Positions 47,545 through 54,316 of a stretch of DNA of 64,000 nt are shown piece after piece (the first letter of the stretch is position 1; each line of letters begins with the position of its first letter). This DNA is from Burkholderiaceae bacterium (GTDB taxonomy: Bacteria; Pseudomonadota; Gammaproteobacteria; Burkholderiales; Burkholderiaceae_C). The translations under genes were made by a program, and so were the position numbers. The notes beneath the pieces are model-generated. The model worked only from the letters and a program-made list of their open reading frames with translations. It did not search any database and was not told the origin of the DNA. The DNA lies in assembly GCA_016790515.1 (NCBI GenBank), contig JAEUOY010000079.1, positions 1-64,000 of the forward strand, read 5' to 3'.

Positions 47545-48987
<1,443 letters not shown>

Positions 48988-49518
48988 CCGGCGTCCTGGC
49001 GTCCGGTCGACCTCGGTGTCGATCGCCGCGGCCAGTGCCACGCTGATCGGGCAACAAGCCGACGCGACCCTGCGCGCCGCGCGTCGATGCCGAGCGGCCG
49101 CCGCGGCGTCGGCAAGTCGTCGATCCTGCGCCAGGACGCCGGGTATCTGCGCTTGCCGCTGCCAAGCGGCGGGCATCCCGCTGCTCGACGAGCTGACCGC
49201 CGCCGAGGCGCGGTCGGCCATCGCACGGGCACGGCGCTGGCCGACCGGATGTTCCGCTTCGACGTCCAGTCGGCGATCGACGCCTTCCTCGACCACGCGC
49301 TGACCACCGGCGTCGAGCACGAGGTGATGGCCGACTCGCCTGCCAGGCGGGCTCGTCCAGCGCGGCCAGCGACACGCCGGTGACGACGGCGCCCAGCGTG
49401 GCGCCGGTGGGTACGATCTTCGGCGCGGGCATCGCGATCCCGTCTCGTCGTGTCGGCCGGGCTCGCAGCGCGAACCTACCCGGTCGGTGCGAGTCGGCCG
49501 CTGCAGGCGGCGGCCGGG
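48988..49518. other. Decayed region with a TauD/TfdA dioxygenase fragment
   Basis: No intact gene in 530 bp. On the minus strand an ATG near 49430 opens PKIVPTGATLGAVVTGVSLA, the start of a TauD/TfdA-type 2-oxoglutarate dioxygenase. The sense is lost after about 30 residues, at DEPAWQA. The remaining 350 bp give arginine-rich frames in all phases. Probably a deletion scar. Confidence 0.4.
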
Positions 49519-50862
49519 TCAGGCCGGCGCAGCGAGCCTGCGAACATCGCGCACGCTGTACGACAGGCCATGCTTCGAGCAGGTGGCACAGAACGGGTGC
49601 CGGTACTTGGCTGCCTCCAGTTCGGCATGCGGCGTGGCCAGGAAGTCCAGGCCGAGCATGTTGGGCTTGTCGTAGACGCTGCAGCACAGCGCGACGCTGC
49701 CGTCGTGGTTGATCACCGTCTGGTTGAAGCGCAGTTCGCAGTCATGCTGCTCGCTGCGTTGGGCGCGGATGCGCGGCAGGTAGACCTGCGGCGGCTCGAT
49801 CAGCGAATCGAGGATCGGATCGGGGGTGCCACGACCTTCGAGCAAGTCGACCAGGCGCTCGAGCGGCTGGTAGAACGCGGCGATCGGGTGGTGCTCGAAA
49901 CCCAGTTCGTCGCACAGGGCCCGCACCGCCGCCACCTCGGCCTCGCCGCCCTTGTACAGGTGGTGGCCCACCCAGACGCGGGTCGAGGCCTTGGCCTGGT
50001 CGAGCCAGTAGCGCAGCAGGTACATGTTGGCCTTGACCAGCCGAAGGTCGCCGCGCGCATGGGTGCGGGCATAGGACGCCGGCGTGAAGCCCGACAACGA
50101 GATCTTCAGGTTGTCGGGGTTGGCGCGCGCCAGCTCGCGCAGGCCGCGGTCGACATTGAGGTTGGTCGACAGATGCACTGCAAGACCATGCCGGCGCACC
50201 GCGCCGATCAGCGCCGGCAGATCGGGGTGCAGCAACGGCTCGCCCCAGTTGAAGAGCCAGACCGCGGGCCGTTCGGCCACCCGCTCGGCGACGATCTTGT
50301 CGAGGATGCGCTCGAACAGCGCCAGTTGCATGAAGCCCCTGGGCCGGTCGGCGGCTGCGAAGTTGCCGACCGGGCAGGTGGGACAGCGCAGGTTGCAGGT
50401 GCCGACGACATCGATCGCATAGACATAGGTCGCCGACTCGCGCGGCGCATGGCGCAGCAGCATGCGGCCCTGGGCGGGATCGAAGACCTCGGGCGCCAGG
50501 TGCTCTCGCGGACGGACCCGGTCGAGGGCTGCCTGCACCGCGGCATCGGGCATCCGCCGGGTCGCCGAACGCTCCAGCCAGTGCAGTGCGACCTCCCACA
50601 GCCCCAGCTCGTACAGCCGCATGCCGATCAGCGGCAGGCTGTCGAACCAGCAGGCGTGGCCGCCGTCCTCGGCGAAGGCCCGCTCCAGCAGGTCCAGCGC
50701 CGGCGCGACGGCCCGTTGCTCGAGCCGGATCATGCCCAGGTTGTGGCGCAGCCCGGGCTGCCAGGGATCGCCGGCCAGCAGCGTCTCGTAGGCGCTGGCG
50801 GCGGCGTCGAACCGCCCCTGGCGGTGCAGCGCCAGCGCCTGTTCGACCGCGTCGGCGCTCAA
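49519..50862 (-). CDS. TPR-linked radical SAM/SPASM-like protein
   Basis: 447 residues from TTG 50862, overlapping the glycosyltransferase stop by 4 bp (TTGA). Residues 1-115 form TPR-like helices (ALALHRQGRFDAAASAYETL, LRHNLGMIRLEQ). The radical SAM core follows: C156-x3-C160-x2-C163 in GTCNLRCPTCPVG, then WLFNWGEPLLHPDLP and LSTNLNVDRGLRELARANPDNLKISLSG. The C-terminus has extra cysteines (HDGSVALCCSVYDKP, FCATCSKHGLSYS) in SPASM fashion, for auxiliary FeS clusters. Such proteins modify peptides or sugars. It is last of a three-gene operon whose first product is a repeat protein, its likely target. Confidence 0.88.
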   Translation of the reverse strand: MSADAVEQALALHRQGRFDAAASAYETLLAGDPWQPGLRHNLGMIRLEQRAVAPALDLLERAFAEDGGHACWFDSLPLIGMRLYELGLWEVALHWLERSATRRMPDAAVQAALDRVRPREHLAPEVFDPAQGRMLLRHAPRESATYVYAIDVVGTCNLRCPTCPVGNFAAADRPRGFMQLALFERILDKIVAERVAERPAVWLFNWGEPLLHPDLPALIGAVRRHGLAVHLSTNLNVDRGLRELARANPDNLKISLSGFTPASYARTHARGDLRLVKANMYLLRYWLDQAKASTRVWVGHHLYKGGEAEVAAVRALCDELGFEHHPIAAFYQPLERLVDLLEGRGTPDPILDSLIEPPQVYLPRIRAQRSEQHDCELRFNQTVINHDGSVALCCSVYDKPNMLGLDFLATPHAELEAAKYRHPFCATCSKHGLSYSVRDVRRLAAPA

Positions 50863-52769
50863 GCGCTCACCTCGCCGGCCTGCAGCGCGGCGACGCGTCT
50901 CGCGTACACCGCCTCCAGCGCCCGCGCCAGGCCGGTGGCCTGCGCCAGCGGACTGGCCAGCAGCCGGCCGCGCAGGCTGCTGCGCCAGATTGCCCGGCGC
51001 TCGGTGTCGGCGGCCAGCGCAGCAGCGCGCTCGACAAACTCCTGCGGTGTGTCGACGGCGAGTTCGGGCAGGCCCAGGGACTGCACGATGGCCAGGGTCT
51101 GGCGCGACACCGGACGCTGCCACGGCAGCGTCAGCACCGGCACGCCCATGCAGAGCGCCTCCAGCGTGGTCTGCAGGCCCGAGAACGGGAACGGGTCGAA
51201 GGCGATGTCGATCTCGTCGTACTCGGCCAGCATCGCCGCGTGCGGCGAAGCCGGGCGCAGTTCGAGCCGGTCGGCGCCGATGCCGTGGGGGGCGAAGCGC
51301 CGGCGGGTGTGTTCGGCAAAGGCCGGGTCGGCGAAGCTGGCCCACTTCAGGATCAGCCGGCTGGCCGGCACCCGCAGCAGCACCCGCGACCACAGCGCGA
51401 CCGCCGCATCGCCCAGCTTCGCCGGGTTGTTGAACGAGCCGAAGCTCACCACGCCCATGCGCTGCGACGGCAGGCTGGACGCGAACGGCGGCAGGTAGGC
51501 GGGCGGCTGGTAGACGAAATGCAGCCCGGGCAGCCGCTCCAGCGGCTCGGTGAAGAAGGCCTCGGCACCCGGGCCGGCCAGACGGTCGCCCAGCACGACC
51601 GCATCGACCTCGGCCAGCCCGGTGCTCGCGAACCAGCCCAGCCACGACAACTGCACCGGTGCCGCGCGTTGCGCCAGCACGCCCGGGCGACCGTGCTCGG
51701 TGTGGCCCGACAGGTCGACCAGCACGTCGATGGCGTGCCGGCGGATCCGCTGGCCCAGCGCGGGGTCGTCCAGCGATGCCACCTCGTGCCAGTGTTCGGC
51801 ATCGCGGCGCATCTGCTGCGCCAGCGCATCGGGCGGGCCGGGCTGGCGCCGGTGGTCGAAACAATGGACTTCGACGGCATCCCGGTCATGCGCGGCGAGC
51901 AGGGGCGCAAACAGCCAGCCCACCGGGTGCTGCCAGAAATCGCCGCTGAGGTAGCCGATGCGCAGCCGGCCGGCGCGGCGGCGCGGAAACGGCAGCGATT
52001 CGGCGGCCGGCCACAGCCCGCCAGCATGGGCGGCGGCCTGGCGCAGTTCGCTGGCCGCCGGCGTGGGGTCGTACTGCATCGCCAGCAGCAGGTTCGAGGC
52101 GGCACGGCGATCACGCGGCGCGCAGCGCAACGCCTGCGTCAGCGCGGCGCGCGCCGATGCGACGTCGCCGCTGCCCAGCAGCGCCACGCCCAGGTTGATC
52201 CAGCCTTCGGTCAGGTGCGGATCGCGTGCCAGCGCATAACGGTACGCCGCGATCGCGTCGAACAGGCGGCCCTGGGCCTGCAGCGCGATGCCGGCGTTGA
52301 CATGCACCGCCGCCTGTTCGGGATCGAGCCGCAAGGCCTGCTGGTCGGCCGCTGCGGCGCCGGCCGCATCGCCGAGCTGGCGCAGGGCGAGCGCCAAGTT
52401 GACCCAGGCGGCCGCCAGCCCCGGCTCCAGTGCGAGCGCCGCGCGGTGGCGCTCGGCGGCCTCGGCCGGACGGCCCGACTCGTACAACAGCAGCCCGTGG
52501 TTGGTGAGCGCGGCTGCCGACCGTGGCGCCGCGACCACCGCCAGCCGCAGCACCGCCTCCGCCAGCGCGGTATCGCCTGCCGCGCGATGCTGCTGCGCCA
52601 ATGCCAGCCGGGCGACCAGCAGCCGATCCGCGCCCGCGGCGGCGCAGGCCGATTCGAAGCCCCGCAAGTCACCACTGCCCTGCGCCGCAACCGCCATCGC
52701 GGGCCAGCGCCCGGGCGAACGGCCGTCTCGGATCGCCGCGAGGTAGCGCTCGCGCGCCGCTGACCTCAC
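50859..52769 (-). CDS. SPINDLY-type O-linked N-acetylglucosamine transferase (TPR-GT41)
   Basis: 636 residues from GTG 52769, overlapping the stop of the repeat-protein gene by 4 bp (GTGA). About six TPR units occupy residues 30-230 (NHGLLLYESGRPAEAAERHRAAL, NLGVALLGSGDVASARAALTQAL). The GT41 catalytic region follows: LRIGYLSGDFWQHPVGWLFAPLLAAHD, VDLSGHTEHGRPGVLAQRAAPVQLSWLG, VSFGSFNNPAKLGDAAVALWSRVL, and FDPFPFSGLQTTLEALCMGVPVLTLP. Relatives attach a sugar (GlcNAc or fucose) to Ser/Thr of proteins. Direct coupling to a Ser/Thr-rich secreted protein suggests that protein is its substrate. Confidence 0.9.
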   Translation of the reverse strand: MRSAARERYLAAIRDGRSPGRWPAMAVAAQGSGDLRGFESACAAAGADRLLVARLALAQQHRAAGDTALAEAVLRLAVVAAPRSAAALTNHGLLLYESGRPAEAAERHRAALALEPGLAAAWVNLALALRQLGDAAGAAAADQQALRLDPEQAAVHVNAGIALQAQGRLFDAIAAYRYALARDPHLTEGWINLGVALLGSGDVASARAALTQALRCAPRDRRAASNLLLAMQYDPTPAASELRQAAAHAGGLWPAAESLPFPRRRAGRLRIGYLSGDFWQHPVGWLFAPLLAAHDRDAVEVHCFDHRRQPGPPDALAQQMRRDAEHWHEVASLDDPALGQRIRRHAIDVLVDLSGHTEHGRPGVLAQRAAPVQLSWLGWFASTGLAEVDAVVLGDRLAGPGAEAFFTEPLERLPGLHFVYQPPAYLPPFASSLPSQRMGVVSFGSFNNPAKLGDAAVALWSRVLLRVPASRLILKWASFADPAFAEHTRRRFAPHGIGADRLELRPASPHAAMLAEYDEIDIAFDPFPFSGLQTTLEALCMGVPVLTLPWQRPVSRQTLAIVQSLGLPELAVDTPQEFVERAAALAADTERRAIWRSSLRGRLLASPLAQATGLARALEAVYARRVAALQAGEVSA

Positions 52770-54316
52770 CGGCGCGTGACGCGTCGGCGCACGGACCAGC
52801 GCATCAGGCCGAGCGCCGCCAGGGCCGCAACCACCAGGCCGGGGCTGCCCGGCTCCGGCACGCCCTGGGCCGCAAAGGTACCGGTGAACTCGAAGACGAC
52901 ATCGCGGCCGTCGGCCCCCGGGTCGGCGAACTGATCGGTGCCCAGCGTCAGCGTCAGCGAGAACGGGCCAGGGCCCACGCCGGCGTGAACCTGCAGCAGC
53001 AGGTTCAGGTCGCCGCCGAACGGCATCAACAGGCTGCCTGGCACGAAGCCCAGCAGGTCGAACGCGCCGGCGTCGGCCCCACCGAGCATCGCGCTCAGCA
53101 GCCGCAGCCCGGTCAGTTCCGGCGGAAATCCGCCATCGCTGCTGGCGTTGAAGACATCGACGCCGAAGCCCTGGCCCGGCGCGAGCGGGCCGAGCGCATG
53201 ACTGCCGCCGGTGCCGTAGTTGCTGTCGAACTGCGGGCCGACCGCCGCGCTGCCGGCGTAGGTCGACGACGTGATCCGGCAGGCCGCGGCGGCCCCGTAC
53301 GAACTGCTGCCGGCCTCGCACGCGATCGCCTGGGTCGACCCCGCTGTGGGCACGTAGAAGCCCGGCGGCGCGGGATTGGGTGCCGTCGCACCCACGACGT
53401 CGACAAAGCTGCCCACCGGCGCCAGCAGCGCCGCCGACTGGCCGGCCGTCGGGACGTAGGTCCCCACCGGTGCCAGCAAGGCCGAGGTCTGACCGGACAT
53501 TGCCACGTAGCTGCCGGGGGGCGCCAGCTGCGCTGCCGACTGGCCGGGCGTCGGCACGTAGCTTCCCGGAGCTGCTGGTGTCGGGGCCGTGGCGCCGCCG
53601 GTGGAGTAGCTGCCGGCCGGCGTGACGGTCGCCGCTGTCTGGCCGATCAGGTCCACGTAGGTGCCGGGCGGTGCAGCGGTCGGTGCCGTGGCACCGAAGG
53701 ACGAAACGAAGCTGCCGGCGGGCGCCGGCAGCGCCTGCGACTGGCCGGCCGTCGGCACGTACCTGCCGGGTGGCGCGAGCAAGGCCGTGGTCTGGCCCGC
53801 CAGCGGCACGTAGCTGCCCGCAGGCGCCAGCAGCGCTTCGGACTGGCCGGCCAGCGGCACATACCTGCCCACAGGCGCCAGCTGTGCAGCAGACTGGCCG
53901 GCCGACGCCACGTAGCTGCCCGCGGGTGCCGGCGTCGGCGTGATGGCTCCGCCGGTGGTGTAGGTGCCGGCCGGCGTGAGGGTCGCCGCAGACTGGCCGA
54001 TCGAATTCACATAGGTGCCGGGTGGCGCAAGCGTCGCGGCCGTGGCGCCGGAACTCGGCACGTAGCTGCCGGCAGGTGCCAGCTGGTAACTGGTCTGGCC
54101 GCTGGTCGGGACATAGGTGCCCGGCAAGGCGGCCATGCAGGGTTCGTTGCCCGAGCTGCTGTAATAGCCCGGAGTGCATGCGGTATCCGCCCAGGCCATC
54201 GGGGACAGACCGAGCGCGCACAAGGCTGCCACGCTGGCATTCGGAACCCAGGGGAATCGGCCGGCAGGCGGCGCGATCGACTTGCGTCCGACCTGCGTCG
54301 GGATGGGCTTGTGCAT
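52766..54316 (-). CDS. PEP-CTERM surface protein with 16 tandem 17-residue repeats
   Basis: 516 residues. The signal peptide ends PMAWA near residue 43. A Cys-bounded seed follows (CTPGYYSSSGNEPC), then 16 repeats at about 62-333 of the form A-P-x-G-(S/T)-Y-V-P-x-x-G-Q-(S/T)-x-A-x-L. A beta-sandwich-like domain spans about 340-480. The end is a PEP-CTERM signal: VPEPGSPGLVVAALAALGL, then basic RRRVTRR. PEP-CTERM proteins are handled by exosortase and anchored or released at the cell surface. The repeats offer dozens of Ser/Thr and one Tyr each. ATG 54316 has GGAG nine bases before it. The gene heads an operon with a glycosyltransferase and a radical SAM enzyme. Confidence 0.88.
   Translation of the reverse strand: MHKPIPTQVGRKSIAPPAGRFPWVPNASVAALCALGLSPMAWADTACTPGYYSSSGNEPCMAALPGTYVPTSGQTSYQLAPAGSYVPSSGATAATLAPPGTYVNSIGQSAATLTPAGTYTTGGAITPTPAPAGSYVASAGQSAAQLAPVGRYVPLAGQSEALLAPAGSYVPLAGQTTALLAPPGRYVPTAGQSQALPAPAGSFVSSFGATAPTAAPPGTYVDLIGQTAATVTPAGSYSTGGATAPTPAAPGSYVPTPGQSAAQLAPPGSYVAMSGQTSALLAPVGTYVPTAGQSAALLAPVGSFVDVVGATAPNPAPPGFYVPTAGSTQAIACEAGSSSYGAAAACRITSSTYAGSAAVGPQFDSNYGTGGSHALGPLAPGQGFGVDVFNASSDGGFPPELTGLRLLSAMLGGADAGAFDLLGFVPGSLLMPFGGDLNLLLQVHAGVGPGPFSLTLTLGTDQFADPGADGRDVVFEFTGTFAAQGVPEPGSPGLVVAALAALGLMRWSVRRRVTRR
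53320..54133 (-). repeat. Tandem array of ~51-bp coding repeats
   Basis: Sixteen in-frame units, mostly 17 codons (two are 16), encode the PEP-CTERM protein repeat. Units 2-7 line up with units 9-14 better than with their direct neighbours: both blocks carry a shortened T-x-G-G-A unit in the same place (TPAGTYTTGGAITPTP and TPAGSYSTGGATAPTP). This points to duplication of a seven-unit block. The array could change copy number by recombination. Confidence 0.85.

What the first reader, a model, noticed from the sequence alone, without database searches (positions are those of the whole stretch)
49519..54316. Repeat protein encoded with its own O-GlcNAc-type transferase and radical SAM enzyme
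Three genes joined by GTGA and TTGA overlaps encode (1) a PEP-CTERM protein with 16 Ser/Thr-rich repeats each carrying one Tyr/Phe, (2) a SPINDLY-type GT41 transferase, and (3) a TPR-radical SAM protein with SPASM-like cysteines. The coupling implies stoichiometric production. I infer that the repeats are glycosylated and then further modified by the radical enzyme before or during exosortase-dependent export. Both enzymes carry TPR units that could read a periodic substrate. I know of no described system combining these three activities on one surface protein.
Basis: partly seen in the sequence, partly recalled or inferred. Interest (0 to 1): 0.85.

Follow-up and report, generated by a model that had tools for sequence, protein, structure and literature searches.

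The report
Surface repeat protein modification gene trio
A surface protein built of a 17-residue repeat sits beside a sugar-attaching enzyme and a radical enzyme, and the same three genes recur together in unrelated bacteria, which suggests an undescribed way of chemically decorating surface proteins.

Summary
In detail: three minus-strand genes with GTGA and TTGA overlaps encode a 16-unit repeat protein, a GT41 transferase and a TPR-radical SAM protein. The trio is a real module: of 11 other distinct loci of this radical SAM family, 10 lie in genomes that also hold such an array and a GT41 of one dedicated group. Anchors differ (PEP-CTERM, autotransporter barrel, serralysin-type, FG-GAP), so the array, not exosortase export, is the constant part. 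The GT41 donor pocket has Phe or Tyr, never the Cys of O-GlcNAc transferase (11 of 11). Four of six radical SAM relatives examined sit in sugar gene clusters, and none of the six has TPRs. I favour GT41 adding a small hexose in the cytoplasm and the radical enzyme editing that sugar; peptide editing is the main rival. Against: three genomes carry such arrays without the radical enzyme. Ten searches of the held paper library found no description of the combination. No chemistry was shown.

The parts
52766..54316 (-). Repeat-array surface protein, 516 aa
   Evidence: Ephrin_rec_like PF07699 7.7e-10
54185..54316 (-). Signal peptide region (aa 1-44, by eye)
   Evidence: sequence reading; no signal-peptide program run
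54131..54178 (-). N-terminal cysteine-type cap unit (aa 47-62)
53321..54130 (-). 16 consecutive cysteine-free (A-type) units, aa 63-332: proposed substrate
   Evidence: DNA period 51
53279..53320 (-). C-terminal cysteine-type cap (aa 333-346), by eye
   Evidence: sequence
52784..52861 (-). PEP-CTERM sorting motif (aa 486-511)
   Evidence: 16.1 of 16 bits NCBIfam, 14.6 of 20.7 Pfam
50859..52769 (-). GT41 glycosyltransferase with N-terminal TPRs (SPINDLY-like)
49519..50862 (-). TPR-radical SAM enzyme with twitch/SPASM-like C-terminus
50374..50397 (-). CX3CX2C radical SAM motif (Cys156, 160, 163)
49579..49740 (-). Auxiliary-cluster region, invariant Cys375, 393, 394, 425, 428

Best explanation
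The trio is a dedicated cytoplasmic modification system for a surface repeat array. Step 1 (inferred): the TPR-GT41 enzyme puts a small hexose, such as glucose or fucose rather than GlcNAc, on Ser/Thr of the cysteine-free units. Step 2 (inferred): the TPR-twitch radical SAM enzyme, related to enzymes found in sugar gene clusters and brought to a protein substrate by its TPR domain, oxidises, epimerises or dehydrates the protein-bound sugar. Step 3 (inferred): the decorated array is exported by whatever route the particular protein has (Sec plus PEP-CTERM here, autotransporter or other routes elsewhere) and serves as a surface rod or adhesin in which decoration replaces the disulfides of the ancestral unit. 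Shown: gene co-occurrence, grouping of the linked GT41s, loss of cysteines, variable anchors, kept catalytic residues. Not shown: any chemistry, any structure of the array. My estimates: dedicated module about 0.85; array is the GT41 substrate about 0.75; radical enzyme edits the attached sugar about 0.45.
For: Array and linked-group GT41 are both present in 10 of 11 other genomes with this radical SAM. In 399 same-order genomes, 3 of 3 with the enzyme have an array against 3 of 396 without (a weak hit in G238 without units not counted), Fisher p 1.9e-6, uncorrected for relatedness. The 11 linked GT41s (window included) lie on one side of a branch against 20 other GT41s: support 84/92, 0 of 500 shuffles as low. 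GT41 and radical SAM distances correlate, r 0.84, 0 of 5000 permutations. Catalytic Lys kept in 11 of 11, His in 10 of 10 that cover it; donor-pocket residue Phe in 9 and Tyr in 2 of 11, which by PMC9715652 section 12 argues for a sugar smaller than GlcNAc. Position 13 is Ser/Thr in 182 of 216 cysteine-free units. Six radical SAM relatives at 31-40% identity share the cysteine pattern but show no TPR (0 of 6), whereas linked ones do (7 of 12 A1 rows, where five rows were cut at the N-terminus or decayed; 5 of 6 longer frames, not the shortened L016); four of the six are in nucleotide-sugar or polysaccharide clusters. The joint core profile matches BtrN best in the PDB (6.7e-8). Ten hand-picked neighbours of five trio loci include no nucleotide-sugar gene, so the trio stands by itself. 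Precedent: HMW1C, a GT41 enzyme, glycosylates an adhesin in the cytoplasm before export (PMC3983070 passages).
Against: Three genomes (L105-L107) carry arrays with the same cysteine-free unit type but no radical enzyme found at E 1e-30 and no GT41 in the 18-19 kb fetched. Runs of more than one cysteine-free unit mark 8 of 11 linked and 0 of 3 unlinked arrays, p 0.055; three linked arrays (L009, L016, L064) alternate like the unlinked ones. BtrN leads only when sugar-cluster relatives are in the profile; with A1 alone it was not among the 60 rows shown of 75. PDB matches are weak, cover mostly the cluster-binding part, and tRNA- and lipid-modifying enzymes rank between BtrN and the other sugar enzymes. 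L012 has neither partner. Mirror-tree and Fisher figures can reflect shared ancestry. For relatives L067 and L070 the sugar context is weak, and 6 of 12 distant relatives found were not looked at for context.
Confidence: 0.45

Rival explanations
1. The radical SAM enzyme edits the repeat peptide itself (for example the conserved Tyr/Phe6, Val7 or Gly4), as RiPP maturases do, while GT41 glycosylates Ser/Thr independently.
For: Radical SAM enzymes with SPASM/twitch domains commonly act on peptides (PMC8326336 passages). Cysteine-free units have Val/Ile at position 7 in 187 of 216 units against 0 of 57 cysteine units, and an aromatic at 6 (the unit pattern itself demands G4 and Y/F6). Low-scoring NCBIfam matches include peptide and protein maturases, all far below cut-off.
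Against: Val7 also occurs in arrays without the enzyme (11 of 13 units) and may simply pack where the disulfide was. No RRE-type family appeared in the Pfam lists; the N-terminus is TPR. Thioether chemistry cannot be general in the window array, whose 16 central units have no Cys. Four of six relatives examined are in sugar clusters.
Confidence: 0.28
2. GT41 modifies the array but the radical enzyme makes the donor sugar (acts on a nucleotide sugar or free sugar) rather than the attached one.
For: Sugar-cluster relatives without TPR presumably act before transfer (inference).
Against: A TPR domain only in the linked enzymes suggests a protein substrate. No nucleotide-sugar gene among ten hand-picked neighbours in L007, L008, L009, L064 and L104, three of which matched nothing.
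Confidence: 0.15
3. The neighbours do not act on the array: the three genes share a genomic island and the enzymes modify other surface molecules.
For: Arrays exist without the enzymes. GT41s are numerous in these genomes.
Against: Recurrence in different orders and strands in distantly related bacteria, a dedicated GT41 group, and array presence in 10 of 11 other genomes with the radical enzyme.
Confidence: 0.1

Closest known systems
HMW1 / HMW1C two-partner adhesin with dedicated GT41 enzyme
   Same: A cytoplasmic GT41 enzyme serving one large surface protein before export (PMC3983070 passages); Phe in the donor pocket (F517 of ApHMW1C, PMC9715652 section 12).
   Different: HMW1C has an AAD domain, not TPRs, and makes N-links; no radical enzyme. 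NCBIfam NGTferase matches P0002 at only 24.6 of 1000 bits.
AIDA-I/Aah and TibA/TibC glycosylated autotransporters
   Same: Short tandem repeats of a surface adhesin modified by a neighbouring cytoplasmic enzyme (recalled; only the start of the TibA abstract was seen). One relative array here ends in an autotransporter barrel.
   Different: Heptosyltransferases of another family (recalled), no radical enzyme, other repeats.
Arabidopsis SPINDLY O-fucosyltransferase (7y4i, 8dtf)
   Same: Best solved match of the GT41 protein (7.6e-78); Lys665 and His495 equivalents kept.
   Different: Tyr744 is Phe and Ser496 is Pro in P0002 (mapped by hand); SPY is a plant nucleocytoplasmic enzyme.
BtrN-type twitch radical SAM enzymes (aminocyclitol/sugar)
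   Same: Best solved match of the core profile (6.7e-8); C-terminal one-cluster domain (BtrN's is recalled).
   Different: BtrN acts on a small molecule in butirosin biosynthesis and has no TPR (recalled); similarity is weak and partial.
Ephrin_rec_like / GCC2-GCC3 domain (PF07699)
   Same: Same 17-residue unit with G4, Y/F6, G11; over Pfam's cut-off in the window protein (38.9 of 23.1 bits) and in 4 of 9 other array proteins scanned (L009, L010, L064, L106).
   Different: The canonical unit has paired cysteines; 16 of the window's units have none, and 5 of the 9 other array proteins, mostly cysteine-free, score no match.

Membership tests
Ephrin_rec_like (GCC2/GCC3) repeats | Profile score over the curated cut-off | tested here: met
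   38.9 bits against 23.1
Ephrin_rec_like (GCC2/GCC3) repeats | Paired cysteines in each unit | tested here: not met
   0 of 16 central units; only the two caps keep them
GT41 glycosyltransferase | GT41 domain with catalytic Lys (K842 of OGT, K665 of SPY) | tested here: met
   PF13844 2.3e-31; Lys in 11 of 11
O-GlcNAc transferase | Small donor-pocket residue (C917 of human OGT) | tested here: not met
   Phe in window enzyme; Phe 9, Tyr 2, Cys 0 of 11; mapping, meaning
O-GlcNAc transferase | Transfers GlcNAc from UDP-GlcNAc | not testable with these tools
   needs an enzyme assay
Radical SAM | CX3CX2C cluster motif | tested here: met
   C156, C160, C163; invariant in 17 of 17 cores aligned (the shortened L016 was left out of that alignment)
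SPASM domain | PF13186 over cut-off, seven cysteines (recalled) | tested here: not met
   15.3 of 21.5 bits in P0003; five invariant cysteines; 12 of 12 members match weakly at E up to 0.1
RiPP radical SAM maturase | RRE domain and short precursor peptide | tested here: not met
   no RRE-type family in the Pfam lists, N-terminus TPR; partner is a 516-aa protein with a signal peptide by eye. RRE is common, not universal
PEP-CTERM protein | C-terminal sorting motif and an exosortase in the genome | tested here: met
   16.1 of 16 bits, below Pfam's cut-off; two exosortases
HMW1C/NGT | NGTferase model | tested here: not met
   24.6 of 1000 bits

The most novel reading that the evidence does not exclude
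A radical SAM enzyme that edits sugars after they are attached to protein: a TPR-guided pair first glycosylates and then radically remodels the glycan on a cysteine-free array, the decoration taking the structural place of the lost disulfides; a portable surface-protein modification system spread over up to three phyla.
Probability: 0.35. Interest if true: 0.9.

Novelty: new variant of a known kind. Interest (0 to 1): 0.74.

Why it matters
Dedicated glycosyltransferases for surface proteins are known, but a conserved partnership with a radical SAM enzyme was not found in the ten searches of the held paper library. If the radical enzyme edits protein-bound sugar or the repeat itself, it would add a new class of post-translational chemistry on large exported proteins. 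The set of loci, with arrays in cysteine-rich, alternating and cysteine-free forms, makes the question directly testable, for instance in Desulfosediminicola flagellatus IMCC35005, whose genome is complete (L009).

Tried and rejected
Rejected: that the cysteine-free unit is a private mark of the radical enzyme; three genomes have such units without it. Rejected: exosortase dependence as part of the mechanism, since anchors differ. Rejected: thioether (sactipeptide/ranthipeptide) chemistry as the general reaction on the window array, since the 16 central units have no cysteine. Led nowhere: a scan of viral contigs with A1 (39 pattern matches, none confirmed); a plasmid search for the radical enzyme (2 distant relatives) and for arrays (none); 247 genomes of the phylum of L009 with A1 (only that genome itself); a phylum sample of 398 with A1 (the window's genome and two distant relatives) and A2 (the window's genome and one weak hit, G520, not followed). 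A weak array hit in G238 showed no units. The large-sample genome searches scored only 4 to 15 first-look candidates a genome, so misses are possible; the A1 searches also had E limits of 1e-30 and 1e-60. Rows dropped: a GT41 row (G000_C31) was extracted on the wrong strand and dropped there, then read correctly; of 44 GT41 matches, the 14 without loci and L127 (stop inside) were not put in the tree. L006 and L007 are identical over 3.1 kb compared and were counted once; L014, L063 and G254/G772 are one locus. L007 has a run of N in its array, so its units were counted in two pieces. The 216 cysteine-free units include 4 stray pattern matches outside the arrays (two each in L015 and L104; checked), none with Val/Ile at position 7. 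The fold comparison with the PDB could not be run, so structural neighbours rest on sequence profiles only. A second fold job (array, A3) was never accepted. A pattern scan for promoters and terminators was at chance level (0 promoter-like, 2 terminator-like sites against 1.4 expected).
Full report
WHAT IS THERE. Three minus-strand genes lie at 54316-49519. The first encodes a 516-aa protein (by eye: signal peptide, repeat array, a globular domain, PEP-CTERM tail). The second encodes a TPR-GT41 protein, the third a TPR-radical SAM protein. The junctions are GTGA and TTGA overlaps. The window lies in a 5.0 Mb draft genome, 82% complete, with two exosortases over the cut-off. Its neighbours are an AMP-binding enzyme upstream and a DEAD-box helicase gene downstream on the other strand.

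THE REPEATS ARE DISARMED GCC2/GCC3 UNITS. Pfam assigns the array to Ephrin_rec_like, PF07699 (E 7.7e-10, 38.9 bits, cut-off 23.1). Laying out the units shows two types. The cysteine type, C-x-x-G-x-[YF]-[QSTN]-x3-G-[QA]-[ST]-x-C, is the canonical one. The cysteine-free type, A-P-x-G-[STY]-[YF]-[VI]-x3-G-[AQ]-[ST], lacks both cysteines. In the window, 16 cysteine-free units lie between a cysteine-type cap at each end. In 11 linked arrays (window included) the script counted 216 cysteine-free and 57 cysteine-type units; four of the 216 are stray matches outside the arrays (two in L015, two in L104). Position 7 is Val/Ile in 187 of 216 against 0 of 57, and position 13 is Ser/Thr in 182 of 216 and 47 of 57. 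L064, L016 and L009 alternate the two types or nearly so, L010 mixes them, and the window, L006/7, L008, L011, L013, L014 and L015 have long cysteine-free runs (5 to 36 units).

THE TRIO IS CONSERVED. A scan with the radical SAM protein found 11 loci; a search of 399 genomes of the same order added one more, G338. Counting duplicates once, there are 11 distinct loci besides the window. The array is on the same contig in 9 of 11 and in the same genome in 10 of 11; a GT41 is on the same contig in 8 of 11 and, in 2 more, on another contig of the genome beside a further piece of the array. For L013 and L014 the contigs break inside the array and for L011 the array is on another contig, so adjacency there is inferred. 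The exception, L012, has no array and only distant GT41s. In L016 both enzyme genes are shortened: the radical enzyme lacks its cluster-binding core and the GT41 lacks its N-terminal part. So trios without such damage number 9 of 11 (the GT41 frame of L010 is cut by the contig end). The records are titled Pseudacidovorax/Burkholderiaceae, Oxalobacteraceae, Betaproteobacteria, Lysobacterales, Acetobacteraceae, Rhodospirillales, Phenylobacterium, Desulfosediminicola (complete chromosome) and Cryomorphaceae; most are MAGs, and the Bacteroidota (Cryomorphaceae) member is a 6.6 kb contig whose binning I could not check beyond its G+C of 42%.

CONVERSE. A profile of four repeat units (A2) was run over the same 399 genomes: 7 had a match, namely the three with the enzyme, plus G220, G228, G198 and a weak G238. 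The last showed no units; the other three have alternating or very short arrays with cysteine-free units, no match to the radical enzyme at the E limit, and no GT41 in the 18-19 kb fetched, which reach at least about 4 kb beyond the array gene. They do hold other GT41s elsewhere. So the enzyme predicts the array (3 of 3 against 3 of 396, p 1.9e-6, not corrected for relatedness), but the array does not predict the enzyme. Runs of more than one cysteine-free unit occur in 8 of 11 linked and 0 of 3 unlinked arrays, p 0.055. A search of 17 genome handles (two of them one genome) with PF07699 itself gave matches in 4, and the 30 matches listed all lie in the arrays beside the radical enzyme; that model misses cysteine-free arrays.

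ANCHORS AND EXPORT. The C-terminal parts differ: PEP-CTERM (window, L008; L006/7 by eye), ESPR signal plus PEP-CTERM (L008), autotransporter barrel (L104, taken as the other piece of the L014 array), Ig-like domains with a marginal serralysin-type end (L013, 20.9 of 20.7 bits), FG-GAP repeats (L064, with an overlapping PF12256 cross-match); for L009, L010, L015 and L146 nothing was named beyond repeat-like cross-matches or a weak DUF11. Gene order and strand also differ; only the window, L006/7 and L008 are collinear. Exosortase and translational coupling are therefore not part of the common core. Ten hand-picked neighbours of L007, L008, L009, L064 and L104 are ordinary (cation efflux, WYL regulator, transglutaminase-like, sensor kinase, LysR, FG-GAP, one weak solute-binding match, three without a match); none is a nucleotide-sugar gene.

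GT41. The best solved match is Arabidopsis SPINDLY (7.6e-78), an O-fucosyltransferase. The Lys665 equivalent is kept in 11 of 11, the His495 equivalent in 10 of 10 that cover it. The residue equivalent to SPY Tyr744 and OGT Cys917 is Phe in 9 and Tyr in 2 of 11. PMC9715652 (section 12 and passages read) proposes that this residue sets donor size: Cys in GlcNAc-using OGT, Tyr in SPY, Phe in the glucose-using ApHMW1C. GlcNAc is thus the less likely donor. The 11 linked enzymes fall on one side of a branch against 20 other GT41s from these genomes and from G220, G228 and G198 (support 84/92; 85% of 200 bootstrap trees; root unknown). Distances of GT41 and radical SAM correlate (r 0.84 for 11, 0.86 without L016, 0 of 5000 permutations), though shared descent of the genomes would also give this.

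RADICAL SAM. The model has mean pLDDT 86.5 and pTM 0.84, with an all-helical N-terminus (residues 3-116) before the radical SAM and C-terminal domains. Members show CX3CX2C and five invariant C-terminal cysteines. Relatives at 31-40% identity (L065, L066, L067, L068, L070, plasmid L148) share those cysteines but have no TPR match (0 of 6 at E 0.01). Linked enzymes do: 7 of 12 A1 rows (which does not name them; five rows were cut at the N-terminus or decayed) and 5 of 6 longer frames (L011, L012, L013, L015, L064, not L016; weakest L012, E 0.0015, below the curated cut-off). For the relatives' surroundings I scanned 29 proteins: the six relatives and 23 hand-picked neighbours. An NAD-dependent epimerase/dehydratase gene lies directly beside the gene in L065, L066 and L068; further finds are C-methyltransferases, a DegT aminotransferase, DHQ-synthase-like and FGGY kinase genes, and an NTP-transferase gene on the other strand in L068; L148 has perosamine synthetase and asnB annotated and a GT2. 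L067 gave only HAD hydrolase and an aldolase-like gene, L070 an iron alcohol dehydrogenase. Of 12 distant relatives found, six were not looked at for context. A profile of linked plus these cores ranks BtrN first in the PDB (6.7e-8); the cytosylglucuronate decarboxylase (1.6e-6) and DesII (5e-6) come after tetraether-lipid and tRNA-modifying enzymes but before 5wgg (3.3e-5; CteB, recalled) and anSME (0.016). With linked members alone BtrN was not among the rows shown. This tilts, but does not settle, the case for sugar editing.

LITERATURE. Ten searches of the held library were made. 'Radical SAM' with 'SPINDLY' and 'PEP-CTERM': 0 papers; 'radical SAM' with 'O-GlcNAc transferase', 'tetratricopeptide' and 'bacteri': 0; 'radical SAM' with 'PEP-CTERM': 3, listing only, none about this by title. 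Papers seen in passages: PMC9715652 (also section 12 in full), PMC4683255, PMC3983070, PMC10991966, PMC8326336. Most subscription papers and all bioRxiv preprints are missing from the library, so absence is limited to it.

VERDICT. A real, recurrent three-gene module; ordinary parts, an unusual combination. Most likely a dedicated surface-array glycosylation system with a radical tailoring step whose target (sugar or peptide) is open.

Noticed in passing
L016 6900-9552: In a Lysobacterales MAG the array, radical SAM and GT41 genes are all present but both enzymes are shortened, the radical enzyme without its cluster-binding core: natural decay or a misassembly.
   Followed up: partly
L008 3715-6054: Array protein with both an ESPR extended signal peptide of type V secretion (47.1 bits) and a PEP-CTERM tail, to my knowledge an unusual pairing.
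   Followed up: no
L105, L106, L107: Three same-order genomes carry Ephrin_rec_like-type arrays without the radical enzyme; L106 and L107 end in a dockerin-like stretch (by eye).
   Followed up: partly
L065, L066, L068, L148: TPR-less relatives of the radical enzyme sit in apparent sugar gene clusters, with further radical SAM genes nearby; a possible undescribed sugar-modifying family.
   Followed up: partly
L130, L141 and further hits in G772; L131, L142 and further hits in G769: Some trio genomes hold up to seven GT41 proteins, each possibly with its own substrate.
   Followed up: no
window 48950-49439: A short minus-strand frame just downstream of the trio recalls the N-terminus of TauD-type dioxygenases by eye; Pfam found nothing.
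   Followed up: partly
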